Below, one piece after another: positions 7,242 to 49,133 of a DNA stretch of 51,880 bases. The stretch spans positions 1 to 51,880 of the IMG/VR virus record IMGVR_UViG_3300047564_000564; one strand, given 5' to 3'. The stretch's first letter is position 1; each line of letters starts with the position of its first letter. Made by a program: the position numbers and the translations under genes. Source of the stretch: a virus. The notes below the pieces were generated by a model. It was not told where the DNA came from, did no database searches, and was given only the letters and a program-made list of their open reading frames with translations.

Positions 7242-7913
7242 ATGACATTAGATCTTCATAACTTTTTCAAGTATTATGATGATGGTAATGCGAACCATGT
7301 AGCTGCAGTTCAATGGCTGGAAGATAATCTTCCTGCACAGTTCATGGATGACTCTGAGACTGAGTGGATTGGAATTTATAGAACTAAGCCACCTACACCA
7401 GAAGTTCTTGCAGTTCCGTATTACAATCAAGTAGATAACTACAGAGATGCTCATAGAACTTGTAACAGTTCTTCCTGTGCAATGTGTTTGTCATTCCTCA
7501 AGCCTGGTTCCATTAAAGGTGACGACGAATACGTCAAGAAGGTATTCGAAATCGGTGATACAACTGACCATGCAGTGCAGACCAAAGTCCTTGCTGCGTA
7601 TGGTGTTAAGTCACATTTCAGCTACAACCTTTCATTCAGTGATATTGATAAGAGCCTTGACGCTGGTAAACCAGTAGTCATTGGTATTCTTCACCGTGGA
7701 TCACTGACCAATCCTACTGGTGGCCACATGTGTGTGGTAATTGGTAAGACCCCAGATGGAAAGGGATACTATATCAATGATCCATATGGTTCTCTCAATG
7801 ATAACTATACTGGTCCAGTGACAAATGGTAAGAAGACCATTTACACCAAAGCCGTTCTCAAACATCGTTGGTGCCCTGGTGGTAACGATGGTTGGGGTAG
7901 AATTTTTGACTGA
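7242..7913 (+). CDS. C39-like cysteine peptidase with N-terminal DLHNFF module
   Basis: 223 residues. Residues 4-47 (DLHNFFKYYD ... GIYR) form a module shared with the next gene. The rest matches the papain-like C39-type peptidase pattern: Cys79 in NSSSCAMCL, His162 in GGHMCVVIG and Asp180 in INDPYG, in the right order for a catalytic triad. Such domains cleave peptides, and in phages they can act on cell-wall cross-links or on virion proteins. It begins the cassette behind a late promoter and lies 11 bases before the lysozyme gene, so a role in lysis or entry is inferred. Confidence 0.7.
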   Translation: MTLDLHNFFKYYDDGNANHVAAVQWLEDNLPAQFMDDSETEWIGIYRTKPPTPEVLAVPYYNQVDNYRDAHRTCNSSSCAMCLSFLKPGSIKGDDEYVKKVFEIGDTTDHAVQTKVLAAYGVKSHFSYNLSFSDIDKSLDAGKPVVIGILHRGSLTNPTGGHMCVVIGKTPDGKGYYINDPYGSLNDNYTGPVTNGKKTIYTKAVLKHRWCPGGNDGWGRIFD

Positions 7914-7924
7914 GGAGAAAACCA

Positions 7925-8593
7925 ATGGCAAGGATCGATTTACACAACTTCTTTAAGTTCTACGACGAAAGAAATCCTAACCACGTCAAAGCTGTACAGT
8001 GGTTAGAAGATAATCTCCCCGTCAAGTTCCTTGAGGACAATATTGATTGGGCAGAGATCTATCGCGGAAAAAAGTCTAGTGCTGCACCAGCCCCTGCCGC
8101 TGCTGCAGCTCCTGTAGTTGGTGGTGATGACATGCCTATGATGGGTCTCAAACTCATCAAAGAGTTTGAGGGATGCCATCTCAAGGCGTACCCTGATCCC
8201 CTCACAGGCGGACTGCCAATCACTATTGGTTGGGGTTCAACCCGTAAGAAGGATGGATCACCATTCCAACTGGGTGATACGATCACTCAACAGGAGGCTG
8301 ATGATCTTTTGATCAGTCAGTGCAAGAACCAGTTCCTTCCCTCACTTCGTAAAATTCCACACTGGAATGAAATGACGGATGGTAAACGTGGTGCATTATT
8401 GTCGTTTGCCTATAACTTAGGTGCAGGCTTCTATGGTGGAGATAACTTCAACACTATCACTAAACGACTGAAGAACAAAGAATGGGATTTGGTTCCCGAT
8501 GCGCTGTATCTCTACAGAAATCCTGGTTCCAATGTAGAAGCAGGTCTTGCCCGTAGAAGGAAGGCGGAAGGTGAAGCTTGGAAAAAAGGTTAA
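7925..8593 (+). CDS. GH24 lysozyme (endolysin) with N-terminal DLHNFF module
   Basis: 222 residues. Residues 5-47 repeat the DLHNFF module of the previous protein, then comes an Ala/Pro linker (51-64) and a T4-lysozyme-type GH24 domain. Catalytic candidates are Glu82 (EFEG), Asp91 (YPDP) and Thr100 before IGWGS. The fold's usual later blocks follow: RGALLSFAYNLG and LARRRKAEGEAW. It cuts the glycan strands of peptidoglycan. There is no signal peptide, so it would need the holin encoded nearby. SD GAGGAG precedes ATG 7925. Confidence 0.88.
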   Translation: MARIDLHNFFKFYDERNPNHVKAVQWLEDNLPVKFLEDNIDWAEIYRGKKSSAAPAPAAAAAPVVGGDDMPMMGLKLIKEFEGCHLKAYPDPLTGGLPITIGWGSTRKKDGSPFQLGDTITQQEADDLLISQCKNQFLPSLRKIPHWNEMTDGKRGALLSFAYNLGAGFYGGDNFNTITKRLKNKEWDLVPDALYLYRNPGSNVEAGLARRRKAEGEAWKKG

Positions 8594-8611: not shown

Positions 8612-8998
8612 ATGGAATTCTTAAATAACAAGAAAAAGGAAAACGCTTTGGGACAATTAATTCGTATTGCGATCTTGAGTTGGTCTGCTGCACTTCTTAC
8701 TGCAAGTTATGCAGGTATGTTATCCAAAATGGATCCTACCTTTATTGCAACGGTGTTCACGGCATCCGCCGCGACCTTCGGTATTAACACCATGAAGAAG
8801 GGTGATGATGACGATCATGAACCCAAGAGAGAAGAACCAAAAACTGAATATGTTATAACCGAACCCGCACCAGTTTGGAGTGATGAGGTTGCTGCTGCCC
8901 CTGCAAGAGATGCATCTCTTGAGGAAAGAGTAGAAGCCCTTGAGACTAAAGCTGAAGAAGGTGAAGGATTTGTTCAACCCCGTACTGGAGGTGCATGA
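8612..8998 (+). CDS. Two-helix membrane protein, holin candidate
   Basis: 128 residues. Two hydrophobic helices (about 14-35 and 43-60) are separated by a short polar turn (MLSKMDP), followed by a long highly charged tail rich in Asp, Glu and Pro that ends in a short coiled coil (SLEERVEALETK). Two membrane helices, small size and position directly after the lysozyme are the usual marks of a class II holin, which would release the endolysin to the periplasm. The family itself is not recognised, so the holin role is inferred from context. Confidence 0.55.
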   Translation: MEFLNNKKKENALGQLIRIAILSWSAALLTASYAGMLSKMDPTFIATVFTASAATFGINTMKKGDDDDHEPKREEPKTEYVITEPAPVWSDEVAAAPARDASLEERVEALETKAEEGEGFVQPRTGGA

Positions 8999-31793: not shown

Positions 31794-31824
31794 ATAAATA
31801 TCTCTAAGGTTATTAGAGATAATG
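31794..31824 (+). promoter_or_regulatory. Late promoter ATAAATA with RBS-covering hairpin
   Basis: ATAAATA 31794-31800; ATCTCTAA (31800-31807), loop GGTTA, TTAGAGAT (31813-31820); ATG 31822. The weak SD AGAG lies in the 3' arm. A late start near 31806 would remove most of the 5' arm. Confidence 0.65.
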
Positions 31825-32307
31825 ATTACAGTTGACTATGAAAATCCATGGTATTACAATGGTGAACCTTTTCTTTCAGAACACATAGAGAATAACTTTG
31901 GTTTTGTTTATAGAATAACCAACTTACAAACAAATAGAAAATATTTGGGACGTAAGTATTTTTGGTCTTTTAGAAAACCCAAAGGTAAATCTAGAAGAGT
32001 TAAGAGTGAAAGTGACTGGAAGAAATACTATGGAAGTTCTGATGAACTTAACCAGGAACGAAAGGAACTGGGGAACTTTGCATTTAAACGGGAGATCATA
32101 AGTCTTCATGAGACTAAAGGATGGGTCAATTTTGAAGAGACCAGACAGTTATTTGTTCATAATGTTCTGTCAGAATCTCTTGCCGATGGGACCCCTGCCT
32201 ACTACAATAGCAACATCCTTGGACGTTACATGAGGAAAGACTACTATGTTTCAGCCAATCAATCACACTCCAGAAGAACAATTGAAACTGGAGGAGATGG
32301 TCTATGA
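31822..32307 (+). CDS. GIY-YIG endonuclease, SegE-like
   Basis: 161 residues. GFVYRITNLQTNRKYLGRKY is the GIY-YIG core (here GFVY...YLG) with the usual arginine and lysine, followed by WKKYYGSSDEL, as in phage SegE-type putative homing endonucleases. A C-terminal DNA-binding part is not recognised. Such genes cut phage DNA near their own site to spread, or have become resident nucleases. The hairpin-late promoter element in front suggests translation only from late transcripts. Confidence 0.75.
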   Translation: MITVDYENPWYYNGEPFLSEHIENNFGFVYRITNLQTNRKYLGRKYFWSFRKPKGKSRRVKSESDWKKYYGSSDELNQERKELGNFAFKREIISLHETKGWVNFEETRQLFVHNVLSESLADGTPAYYNSNILGRYMRKDYYVSANQSHSRRTIETGGDGL

Positions 32308-32565: not shown

Positions 32566-34155
32566 ATGTCAAACTATACAAAGAAGGCCCTGGCCACAGC
32601 ATCTGCTCTGCTGATGGGTTCTTTTGCAACACCTGCATTTTCTCACACAAACTCTATTGGTTACGTCGGGGATGGTCAAGGTGGTATCACGTTCTGGTAT
32701 GGTTCTTGGCATGGAGGAACCAACTTCAATGAAGCCGAAATTAAACTAGAAGGTGCTAACGGGACCAGTTATACAACCACCATCACTCAGTTTAATTTAC
32801 TGCAGAACTCAACACCAGCTGGTTTAATTCCTGGAACCAACTACTTCACATCTGATGGAACTCAACTTGTTCCTTACGGAGATCCTAATGGTGGTGGAGA
32901 TTCATATACTTGGCAGGGTTTAACATTCTCTGGACTTTCTGCAGGTGATTATACTTTCACCTATATTCCTTTGGGTGACCCACAGTCATATCAACCAAAT
33001 GGCACTCCAACGATGGACTGGGTGCCTATGGACCAAGTTATCCGTAGTGCTACTGTTACTCTTTCTGCAACACTTCTTTCTGGTGATGCTAACCAGAATG
33101 GTATTCTTGATATCTATGAGTTTGGTACAGTTCAACAACCATCAACACCAACACTCACAAGTTCGGTAACCAATCCTTATTCTCAAACAGTTGTTACCAC
33201 CATCACCGAGACACCAAAAGAAGGTGATGGTGTACAGACAATGACCAGAGATGTTGATCTGGATGTAACCACAACCTATCAAACTGTAGATACTTATAGT
33301 GACGGTACAACAGTAACGGTTTACTCACAAACCAATTCTCAAAGTAGACACAGTAGCAAGAAGTATTCTGGTCGTATTGATCAGTTAGAAGTTCTTGATG
33401 GCATCAGTGATACATCTAATGATCTTCTGGATCATGAACCACTCACGAACCACAAGAAGAGATTTAGAATGTTTGAAAACAATACATTGACAAAATCTTA
33501 TAATGCTGATGGATATGATGGTTTCTCTACTATCTTTGGTGGTGGATTTGAATATGACCTGACAAAGGGATGGACTGCTGGAGCCCATTACAATACTCTC
33601 TACACAGAACTCAAAGGTGTAGATAGTCTTTCACATCTCAGCAGACAACACGTTGGTATCTTTAATAGTTTCCATGGTAAGAATGTTGCATTAGTAACAA
33701 ACGCTGGTGGTTCTAATGATACCTATGATTATGCAAGAACAGTTGAGTATCAATATGCCAACTGGGGTGAAACCAAAGGTCAACAGTGGTGGGTTCACAA
33801 TAGACTGTATCTCAATAACTCTGGCTCGATCAAACCATTCATCGGTCACACAGTTCAAAATGTAAAACGTGATGGATACACAGAGACTGGTACGGTTTCA
33901 TCTGCTAGAAGAGTTGCTGAAGTAAATAAAACCTCTCATGTTGGTGAGGCTGGTTTAACATTAGAAACCAGATTTGGTGGTAAGAAGAAAGATGTAATTG
34001 GTTTGAGTGTTGAAGGTTCCTACGGAACTGATAATTCTTATGGTGTTGTTGCTGCAGTTGATTACAAAGAAGTTATCTTCATTGAAGGATCACATATTGT
34101 TGCAGATGATGTTACAAACAACTCTGTTGCAGCCAAAGTGAAATTTAGGTTCTAA
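32566..34155 (+). CDS. Secreted outer-membrane protein with C-terminal beta-barrel (autotransporter-like)
   Basis: 529 residues. The N terminus is a classical signal peptide (lysines, then ATASALLMGSFATPAFS, cleavage near 26). Residues 27-170 are Gly/Thr-rich; GDANQNGILDIYEF (173-186) is an EF-hand or dockerin-like calcium loop; a Thr-rich stretch follows. From about residue 300 alternating strands (GGGFEYDLTKGWTAGAHY) end in AAKVKFRF with a terminal Phe, the mark of outer membrane barrels. This fits a passenger plus translocator made by the phage for the host surface. It has its own late promoter. Unusual in a phage. Confidence 0.7.
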   Translation: MSNYTKKALATASALLMGSFATPAFSHTNSIGYVGDGQGGITFWYGSWHGGTNFNEAEIKLEGANGTSYTTTITQFNLLQNSTPAGLIPGTNYFTSDGTQLVPYGDPNGGGDSYTWQGLTFSGLSAGDYTFTYIPLGDPQSYQPNGTPTMDWVPMDQVIRSATVTLSATLLSGDANQNGILDIYEFGTVQQPSTPTLTSSVTNPYSQTVVTTITETPKEGDGVQTMTRDVDLDVTTTYQTVDTYSDGTTVTVYSQTNSQSRHSSKKYSGRIDQLEVLDGISDTSNDLLDHEPLTNHKKRFRMFENNTLTKSYNADGYDGFSTIFGGGFEYDLTKGWTAGAHYNTLYTELKGVDSLSHLSRQHVGIFNSFHGKNVALVTNAGGSNDTYDYARTVEYQYANWGETKGQQWWVHNRLYLNNSGSIKPFIGHTVQNVKRDGYTETGTVSSARRVAEVNKTSHVGEAGLTLETRFGGKKKDVIGLSVEGSYGTDNSYGVVAAVDYKEVIFIEGSHIVADDVTNNSVAAKVKFRF

Positions 34156-35518: not shown

Positions 35519-35953
35519 ATGGACGATCTATATCAATCCCTATTCAAAGCCCAGACAAGTCTTTTTCATTTGTTTCAAAAGACCTGGGCTTTTCATTGGA
35601 ATGTAGTTGGTCAAGACTTCCAACAGTTACATACATTGTTTGGTGAACAATACAATACAATGTTTGAAGAGATTGATCGTCTCACTGAACACATGCGGTA
35701 TCTTCGCATGAAACCTTTTAATTCACTTGCAAAAGTTGTTGAGATCTCAGAGATTGCCTCTGTTGATGGACAACCTGATGCAAAGTCTATGATTACACGT
35801 TTGGTTGCAGACAATAAGAAAATTGTTGACCTTCTTACAGACGTTATTGAAAAGGCAGAAGCTTCAAAACAATACACAACATCTAATATTGCACAAGACT
35901 TAATCGAAACTCACGGTAAGTTTATTTGGATGTTAAGATCCTTTCTAACATAG
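35519..35953 (+). CDS. dps: Dps-like ferritin (DNA protection during starvation)
   Basis: 144 residues. AFHWNVVGQDFQQLHTLFGEQ is the Dps signature. The inter-subunit ferroxidase ligands His26, His38, Asp53 and Glu57 keep the spacing of E. coli Dps (His51, His63, Asp78, Glu82), so iron oxidation with peroxide is likely. Dps forms 12-subunit shells that store iron and protect DNA. The N-terminal DNA-binding tail of E. coli Dps is missing. Together with a peroxiredoxin gene further on, it suggests control of oxidative damage in the infected cell. Confidence 0.88.
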   Translation: MDDLYQSLFKAQTSLFHLFQKTWAFHWNVVGQDFQQLHTLFGEQYNTMFEEIDRLTEHMRYLRMKPFNSLAKVVEISEIASVDGQPDAKSMITRLVADNKKIVDLLTDVIEKAEASKQYTTSNIAQDLIETHGKFIWMLRSFLT

Positions 35954-48755: not shown

Positions 48756-49133
48756 ATGATTAAATCTGTTATTGCAACTGCCGCTGTCGCCCCTTTCCTT
48801 GCCACCGCTGCGTTCGCTGGTCCTTATGTTGAGAGCAAGACCACTTCTGCTCTTTCTGACGGCACCTACAAAGGCGCTCAAACCGAACTTCGTGTTGGTT
48901 ACGAAGAGAAGGTCGCTCCTACCGTGACCGTCTTTGGCGAGATCGGTCCTGGTTATGAGTGGACCAAAGGCACCACTACTACCACTGGCGAAACTGTTGC
49001 CGTTGGTGAAGTTGGTGTGAAGGTTAAGGCAACCGATAAGGTTAGTGTGAATGCCAAAGTGACTGGTGAGTATGGTAATACCAGTGAAGTCTTTGACATG
49101 GGTGGTGAACTGAAGGTTCGTTACGCCTTCTGA
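48756..49133 (+). CDS. Small outer-membrane-type protein with signal peptide
   Basis: 125 residues. A signal peptide (KSVIATAAVAPFLATAAFA, cleavage near 21) is followed by a mature part of alternating strands (TELRVGYEEKVAPTVTVFGE, KVSVNAKVTGEYG) ending in VRYAF. The final Phe and the alternation are typical of 8-strand outer membrane barrels, though about 100 residues is very short for one. It is GC-richer at third positions than its neighbours, suggesting strong expression. It has its own promoter and a structured leader. Confidence 0.7.
   Translation: MIKSVIATAAVAPFLATAAFAGPYVESKTTSALSDGTYKGAQTELRVGYEEKVAPTVTVFGEIGPGYEWTKGTTTTTGETVAVGEVGVKVKATDKVSVNAKVTGEYGNTSEVFDMGGELKVRYAF

What the first reader, a model, noticed from the sequence alone, without database searches (positions are those of the whole stretch)
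32566..34155. Phage-encoded autotransporter-like outer membrane protein
A signal peptide, a Gly/Thr-rich passenger with a calcium loop (173-186) and a C-terminal beta region ending in KFRF. Phages rarely carry such proteins. Under a late promoter it would reach the host surface before lysis, where it could mask receptors, bind other cells or assist envelope change together with the glycan operon.
Basis: partly seen in the sequence, partly recalled or inferred. Interest (0 to 1): 0.65.

Follow-up and report, generated by a model that had tools for sequence, protein, structure and literature searches.

The report
Cyanophage surface-display autotransporter protein
This gene of a virus that infects cyanobacteria very probably encodes an outer-membrane "autotransporter" that would display a small, strongly conserved domain on the infected cell's surface; bacteria use such proteins widely, but their carriage by phages is almost undescribed and the purpose is unknown.

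Summary
The ORF at 32566-34155 (529 aa) is real and under purifying selection (dN/dS about 0.15-0.23). It has a signal peptide, a 149-residue N-terminal beta-sandwich, a dockerin-like Asp/Asn loop, a Thr-rich stalk, a helix and a C-terminal domain. Pfam calls that domain an autotransporter beta-domain (E 2e-11). The AlphaFold2 model gives exactly 12 barrel strands preceded by a helix, and Foldseek matches it to NalP, EstA, Hbp, BrkA and EspP.

It is an accessory gene of cyanomyovirus contigs (158 confirmed IMG/VR stretches, 2 of 50,697 phage records), usually directly after the two-gene lysis cassette. Other phages carry it inside a published curli/FecR/cyclase module, and one relative there keeps the barrel but has another passenger. 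Bacterial relatives carry the same N-domain on autotransporter barrels or IPTL-/PEP-CTERM-type tails, which points to surface delivery.

It starts with an invariant histidine exactly at the signal-peptidase site, with a near-invariant second histidine and an invariant glutamate. A metal or ligand site is conceivable, unproven. Surface display is well supported; the biological role is inference.

The parts
32566..34155 (+). autotransporter gene (529 aa)
32566..32643 (+). signal peptide, residues 1-26, predicted cleavage AFS|H27
   Evidence: sequence; -1/-3 rule obeyed in 92 of 92 relatives
32644..33090 (+). N-terminal displayed domain (residues 27-175), Ig-like beta-sandwich; invariant His27 (mature +1) and Glu56, His49 conserved in 21 of 22 representatives
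   Evidence: AF2 pLDDT 93; conservation
33082..33123 (+). calcium-loop-like GDANQNGILDIYEF (173-186)
   Evidence: motif only; conserved among phage members
33154..33378 (+). Thr-rich stalk of three long beta strands (197-271)
   Evidence: most variable region
33382..33429 (+). helix (273-288) preceding the barrel
33463..34152 (+). 12-stranded translocator barrel (300-528), terminal Phe529
31794..31800 (+). ATAAATA, late-promoter-like motif upstream of segE; possible promoter for segE and the autotransporter
   Evidence: weak (12 matches, 7.5 expected)
31822..32307 (+). SegE-like GIY-YIG endonuclease gene upstream; also precedes the lysis pair and autotransporter in many relatives
7242..8593 (+). 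lysis pair (C39-peptidase/endolysin-like and lysozyme-like genes) that directly precedes the autotransporter in most relatives; here the slot between 8593 and 8612 lacks it

Best explanation
A monomeric type Va-like autotransporter used by a cyanomyovirus to display a small domain on the infected Synechococcus cell. It would be exported by Sec with cleavage before His27, and its C-terminal 12-strand barrel inserted by the host Omp85/BAM machinery through the terminal-Phe signal. The chain would then pass out through the pore, leaving the helix in the barrel, a beta stalk outside, and the 149-residue N-domain at the tip with its new N-terminal histidine exposed. Architecture and homology are shown computationally; Sec/BAM use, topology and timing are inferred. 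Most likely role (inferred, about 0.5 by itself): changing what the infected cell's surface binds, by receptor masking/superinfection exclusion or adhesion/aggregation, through one conserved ligand site rather than antigenic variation. The confidence given is for the autotransporter/surface-display part.
For: Pfam Autotransporter E 2.2e-11. 12 strands plus helix, pLDDT mostly above 90; Foldseek NalP 4e-9, EstA 6e-9, Hbp, BrkA, EspP. Signal-peptidase site obeyed in 92 of 92 relatives. The same N-domain sits on bacterial autotransporter barrels (L074, L075, L078, L165, L166), at the start of classical beta-helical autotransporters (Ochrobactrum and Novosphingobium plasmids, L163, L162) and on short proteins with IPTL-/PEP-CTERM-type tails (L076, L077, L127, L167), so it is a surface-targeted domain. 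In another phage group it lies in a csgF-csgG-curlin-FecR-[AT]-CHASE2/cyclase module, and L175 keeps a related barrel in that slot with a different passenger, i.e. a display chassis. Purifying selection; the N-domain is the best conserved part.
Against: No experiment places it on a cell surface. Expression timing is not shown and no promoter lies directly upstream. No cyanobacterial genome appeared among the seven close N-domain relatives found, so how well a cyanobacterial Omp85 would assemble it is unknown. Passenger function is unknown, and conservation of the N-domain argues against simple diversifying receptor mimicry.
Confidence: 0.85

Rival explanations
1. Lysis-associated envelope factor: it is made with the endolysin/lysozyme pair and weakens or opens the outer membrane at the end of infection (spanin-like role), the N-domain acting on surface glycans.
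For: In most cyanophage contigs the gene directly follows the two lysis genes; likewise in DSL-LC02 and DSL-LC03.
Against: In the window the lysis pair lies at 7242-8593, 24 kb away, with the autotransporter absent from that slot; in the second phage group it sits in a curli module; bacterial homologues have no lysis context; a plugged 12-strand barrel is not a known lysis device.
Confidence: 0.15
2. The N-domain is a metal (probably copper) site of histidine-brace type formed by the mature N-terminal His27, His49 and Glu56, acting as a surface metal binder or oxidase.
For: His27 follows the cleavage site in all 92 relatives found. In 22 representatives below 75% identity His+1, Thr+2 and Glu+30 are 100% and His+23 95% conserved. 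Strands 2-9 and 15-21 form a hairpin whose simplest register sets residue 1 opposite 23 (inferred).
Confidence: 0.2
3. Virion protein such as a tail fibre or head decoration.
For: Thr/Gly-rich beta-rich proteins are common in tails (general knowledge).
Against: Signal peptide, autotransporter barrel, non-structural neighbours, bacterial surface homologues.
Confidence: 0.03

Closest known systems
Type Va autotransporters (NalP, EstA, BrkA, EspP, Hbp; PF03797)
   Same: Signal peptide, N-terminal passenger, helix followed by a 12-strand C-terminal barrel ending in Phe
   Different: Phage-encoded; small beta-sandwich passenger on a Thr-rich stalk instead of a long beta-helix; no known protease or esterase domain
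Bacterial proteins with the same N-domain (L074, L075, L078, L162, L163, L165, L166; short tail forms L076, L077, L127, L167)
   Same: HTxSxGY start after the AxA site, WYGxWH...E motif, surface targeting
   Different: Stalk and barrel sequences differ; some use IPTL-/PEP-CTERM-type tails
DSL-LC03 gene WJZ47857.1 and DSL-LC02 gene WJZ48311.1
   Same: Orthologous whole protein, about 58-70% identical; the first is annotated as an autotransporter domain protein
   Different: Located after the lysis pair, not after nrdB-segE
Pelagiphage curli (T8SS) modules (PMC7029224, PMC9599517)
   Same: Phage-encoded machinery for displaying protein on the host surface; relatives of this gene sit inside such a module
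   Different: Different secretion pathway; neither text contains the word autotransporter

Membership tests
Type Va autotransporter | C-terminal 12-strand beta-domain (PF03797) | tested here: met
Type Va autotransporter | Sec signal peptide and N-terminal passenger | tested here: met
Type Va autotransporter | helix spanning the barrel pore before strand 1 | tested here: inconclusive
   helix 273-288 predicted directly before strand 1; its position inside the pore was not measured
Type Va autotransporter | passenger exposed on the cell surface | not testable with these tools
   needs fractionation or shaving of infected cells
Type Va autotransporter | BAM-dependent insertion, terminal aromatic residue | tested here: inconclusive
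   terminal Phe529 invariant; BAM dependence not testable here
LPMO / CopC histidine-brace proteins | mature N-terminal His plus second His | tested here: met
   sequence level only
LPMO / CopC histidine-brace proteins | family profile or fold match | tested here: not met
LPMO / CopC histidine-brace proteins | copper bound in T-shaped geometry | not testable with these tools
   no coordinates or metal assay
Tail fibre / virion protein | found in virions | not testable with these tools
   relatives known from metagenome-derived genomes only

The most novel reading that the evidence does not exclude
Cyanophages and curli-module-bearing relatives carry an autotransporter display chassis with exchangeable cargo, and the cargo here is an undescribed family of surface domains whose mature N-terminal histidine builds a metal or ligand site, so infection would put a phage-made active site on the host surface.
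Probability: 0.2. Interest if true: 0.75.

Novelty: new variant of a known kind. Interest (0 to 1): 0.55.

Why it matters
Phage remodelling of the host surface is mostly known through glycosyltransferases, small exclusion proteins and, recently, curli modules. A recurrent phage-borne autotransporter with a conserved displayed domain and swappable cargo would add a second secretion route by which phages put their own proteins on infected cells. The undescribed N-domain, shared with bacterial surface proteins, gives a concrete target for structure and binding tests.

Tried and rejected
Known N-domain family: Pfam, PDB sequences and Foldseek all negative. NCBIfam no hit; PHROGs only a weak uncharacterised hit. 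LPMO/CopC membership not supported by fold. Tail-fibre reading rejected. A direct late promoter was not found at the gene. Host origin: the close N-domain relatives found in genome contigs are Pseudomonadota-type MAGs and one Acidobacteria MAG, none cyanobacterial (which used only two exact peptide patterns). An N-domain tree did not resolve one clean phage clade, so the number of transfers is open. Literature on phage-encoded autotransporters: no paper on the topic in the held library; predicted-structure databases hold entries named 'Autotransporter beta-domain' from uncultured Caudovirales.

Full report
Observation. The ORF at 32566-34155 is intact. It has a signal peptide ending AFS|H27, the GDANQNGILDIYEF loop, a Thr-rich middle and a C-terminus KVKFRF. 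Against its nearest relatives dN/dS is 0.15-0.23, so the gene is kept for a function. The window is a 51,880-base virus record, and psbA, nrdAB, hli, peroxiredoxin and glycan genes mark it as a Kyanoviridae-like cyanomyovirus.

What it is. Pfam finds the autotransporter beta-domain (residues 309-486, E 2.2e-11). An AlphaFold2 model built with 38 sequences gives strands 300-313, 318-333, 336-351, 354-370, 374-393, 397-416, 422-435, 453-470, 478-487, 492-500, 504-513 and 516-528, i.e. twelve, preceded by a helix at 273-288, mostly with pLDDT above 90. Foldseek against the PDB ranks NalP, EstA, Hbp, BrkA, AaaA and EspP first (E 4e-9 and weaker). The viral library returns proteins named autotransporter from uncultured Caudovirales.

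Distribution. Two of 50,697 phage records carry it (DSL-LC02, DSL-LC03, both assembled from a lake metagenome); 158 IMG/VR stretches were confirmed. In most of the mapped loci it directly follows the C39-peptidase/endolysin plus lysozyme pair, often with nrdA-nrdB-segE upstream. In the window the lysis pair lies at 7242-8593 and is followed at 8612 by the gene that elsewhere follows the autotransporter, so that slot lacks it, and the autotransporter sits after nrdB-segE instead. Contigs L001 and L002 share the window's arrangement. The gene therefore behaves as an accessory gene.

A second phage context. More distant homologues (L152, L158, L159, L178) lie in the order csgF, csgG, curlin-like, FecR, [autotransporter], 138-aa protein, with CHASE2/adenylate cyclase next where the contig reaches that far (Pfam; order). 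This module is published for pelagiphages (PMC7029224, PMC9599517), but the word autotransporter does not occur in either text. In L175 the same slot, next to the 138-aa and CHASE2/cyclase genes, holds a protein with a related barrel but an unrelated passenger; L176, L177, L181 and L182 match in the barrel only but are truncated at the contig edge. The chassis thus carries at least two cargos in phages.

The displayed domain. Residues 27-175 are shared with bacterial proteins. They sit on autotransporter barrels in L074, L075, L078, L165 and L166 (Pfam-tested for L075; the others judged from sequence). They sit at the tip of long beta-helical autotransporters on conjugative plasmids of Ochrobactrum and Novosphingobium (L163, L162). 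They also occur on short proteins with IPTL- or PEP-CTERM-type tails in L076, L077, L127 and L167, identified by eye from the tail sequence. Such tails and barrels all imply envelope or surface targeting. Folded as the mature fragment with bacterial relatives, the domain is a confident beta-sandwich (pLDDT 93, pTM 0.88), but no PDB entry matches significantly (best E 0.02, Ig/FnIII-like) and no Pfam or PDB sequence family is found.

In all 92 distinct relatives found with the motif, the residue before the conserved histidine is A or S and position -3 is small (the histidine itself was part of the search pattern). In 22 representatives below 75% identity, found by profile rather than by motif, His+1, Thr+2 and Glu+30 are invariant and His+23 is present in 21; in L167 it is shifted by one. 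The first two strands (2-9, 15-21) form a hairpin whose simplest register sets residues 1 and 23 opposite each other. That would fit a metal or ligand site built on the new N-terminus, as in histidine-brace proteins (established knowledge of LPMO and CopC). The fold search does not place it in those families, and distances could not be measured, so this stays a hypothesis.

Mechanism. Shown by computation: architecture, homology, selection, synteny. Inferred: Sec export, Omp85-assisted insertion, exposure on the infected cell, and a role at the surface. The domain is better conserved than stalk or barrel (69% mean pairwise identity against 49% and 57%), which argues for one constant ligand rather than antigenic variation. 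Candidate roles are receptor masking, adhesion/aggregation (compatible with the curli neighbourhood elsewhere) and help at lysis (compatible with the lysis neighbourhood, but broken in this genome).

Novelty. The translocator is a classical kind. New here are its recurrence in cyanomyoviruses and in curli-module phages, the swapped cargo, and an undescribed surface domain with a mature N-terminal histidine. The literature search was limited to the held open-access library.

Noticed in passing
window 48756-49133: A second predicted outer-membrane barrel gene, PF24653 'Cyanophage outer membrane protein like beta barrel domain' (phrog_417); a homologue is annotated in DSL-LC02.
   Followed up: partly
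L152 2441-9715, L159 2179-10630: Autotransporter inside the phage curli/FecR/cyclase module, between FecR and the cyclase; not named in the two pelagiphage papers searched.
   Followed up: partly
L175 627-2555: Phage autotransporter with a related barrel but an unrelated passenger with no Pfam match.
   Followed up: no
L162 3851-8275, L163 3725 onward: Conjugative plasmids with large beta-helical autotransporters starting with the same N-domain; in the Ochrobactrum record the annotated start is placed inside the protein, so the N-domain is left out.
   Followed up: partly
window 31822-32307: PHROG names this gene family 'NAD synthetase', but Pfam identifies a SegE GIY-YIG endonuclease (E 3.5e-53); the phage annotation looks wrong.
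   Followed up: partly
window 35519-35953: Ferritin-like (Dps-type) gene in the phage, E 1.4e-22.
   Followed up: no
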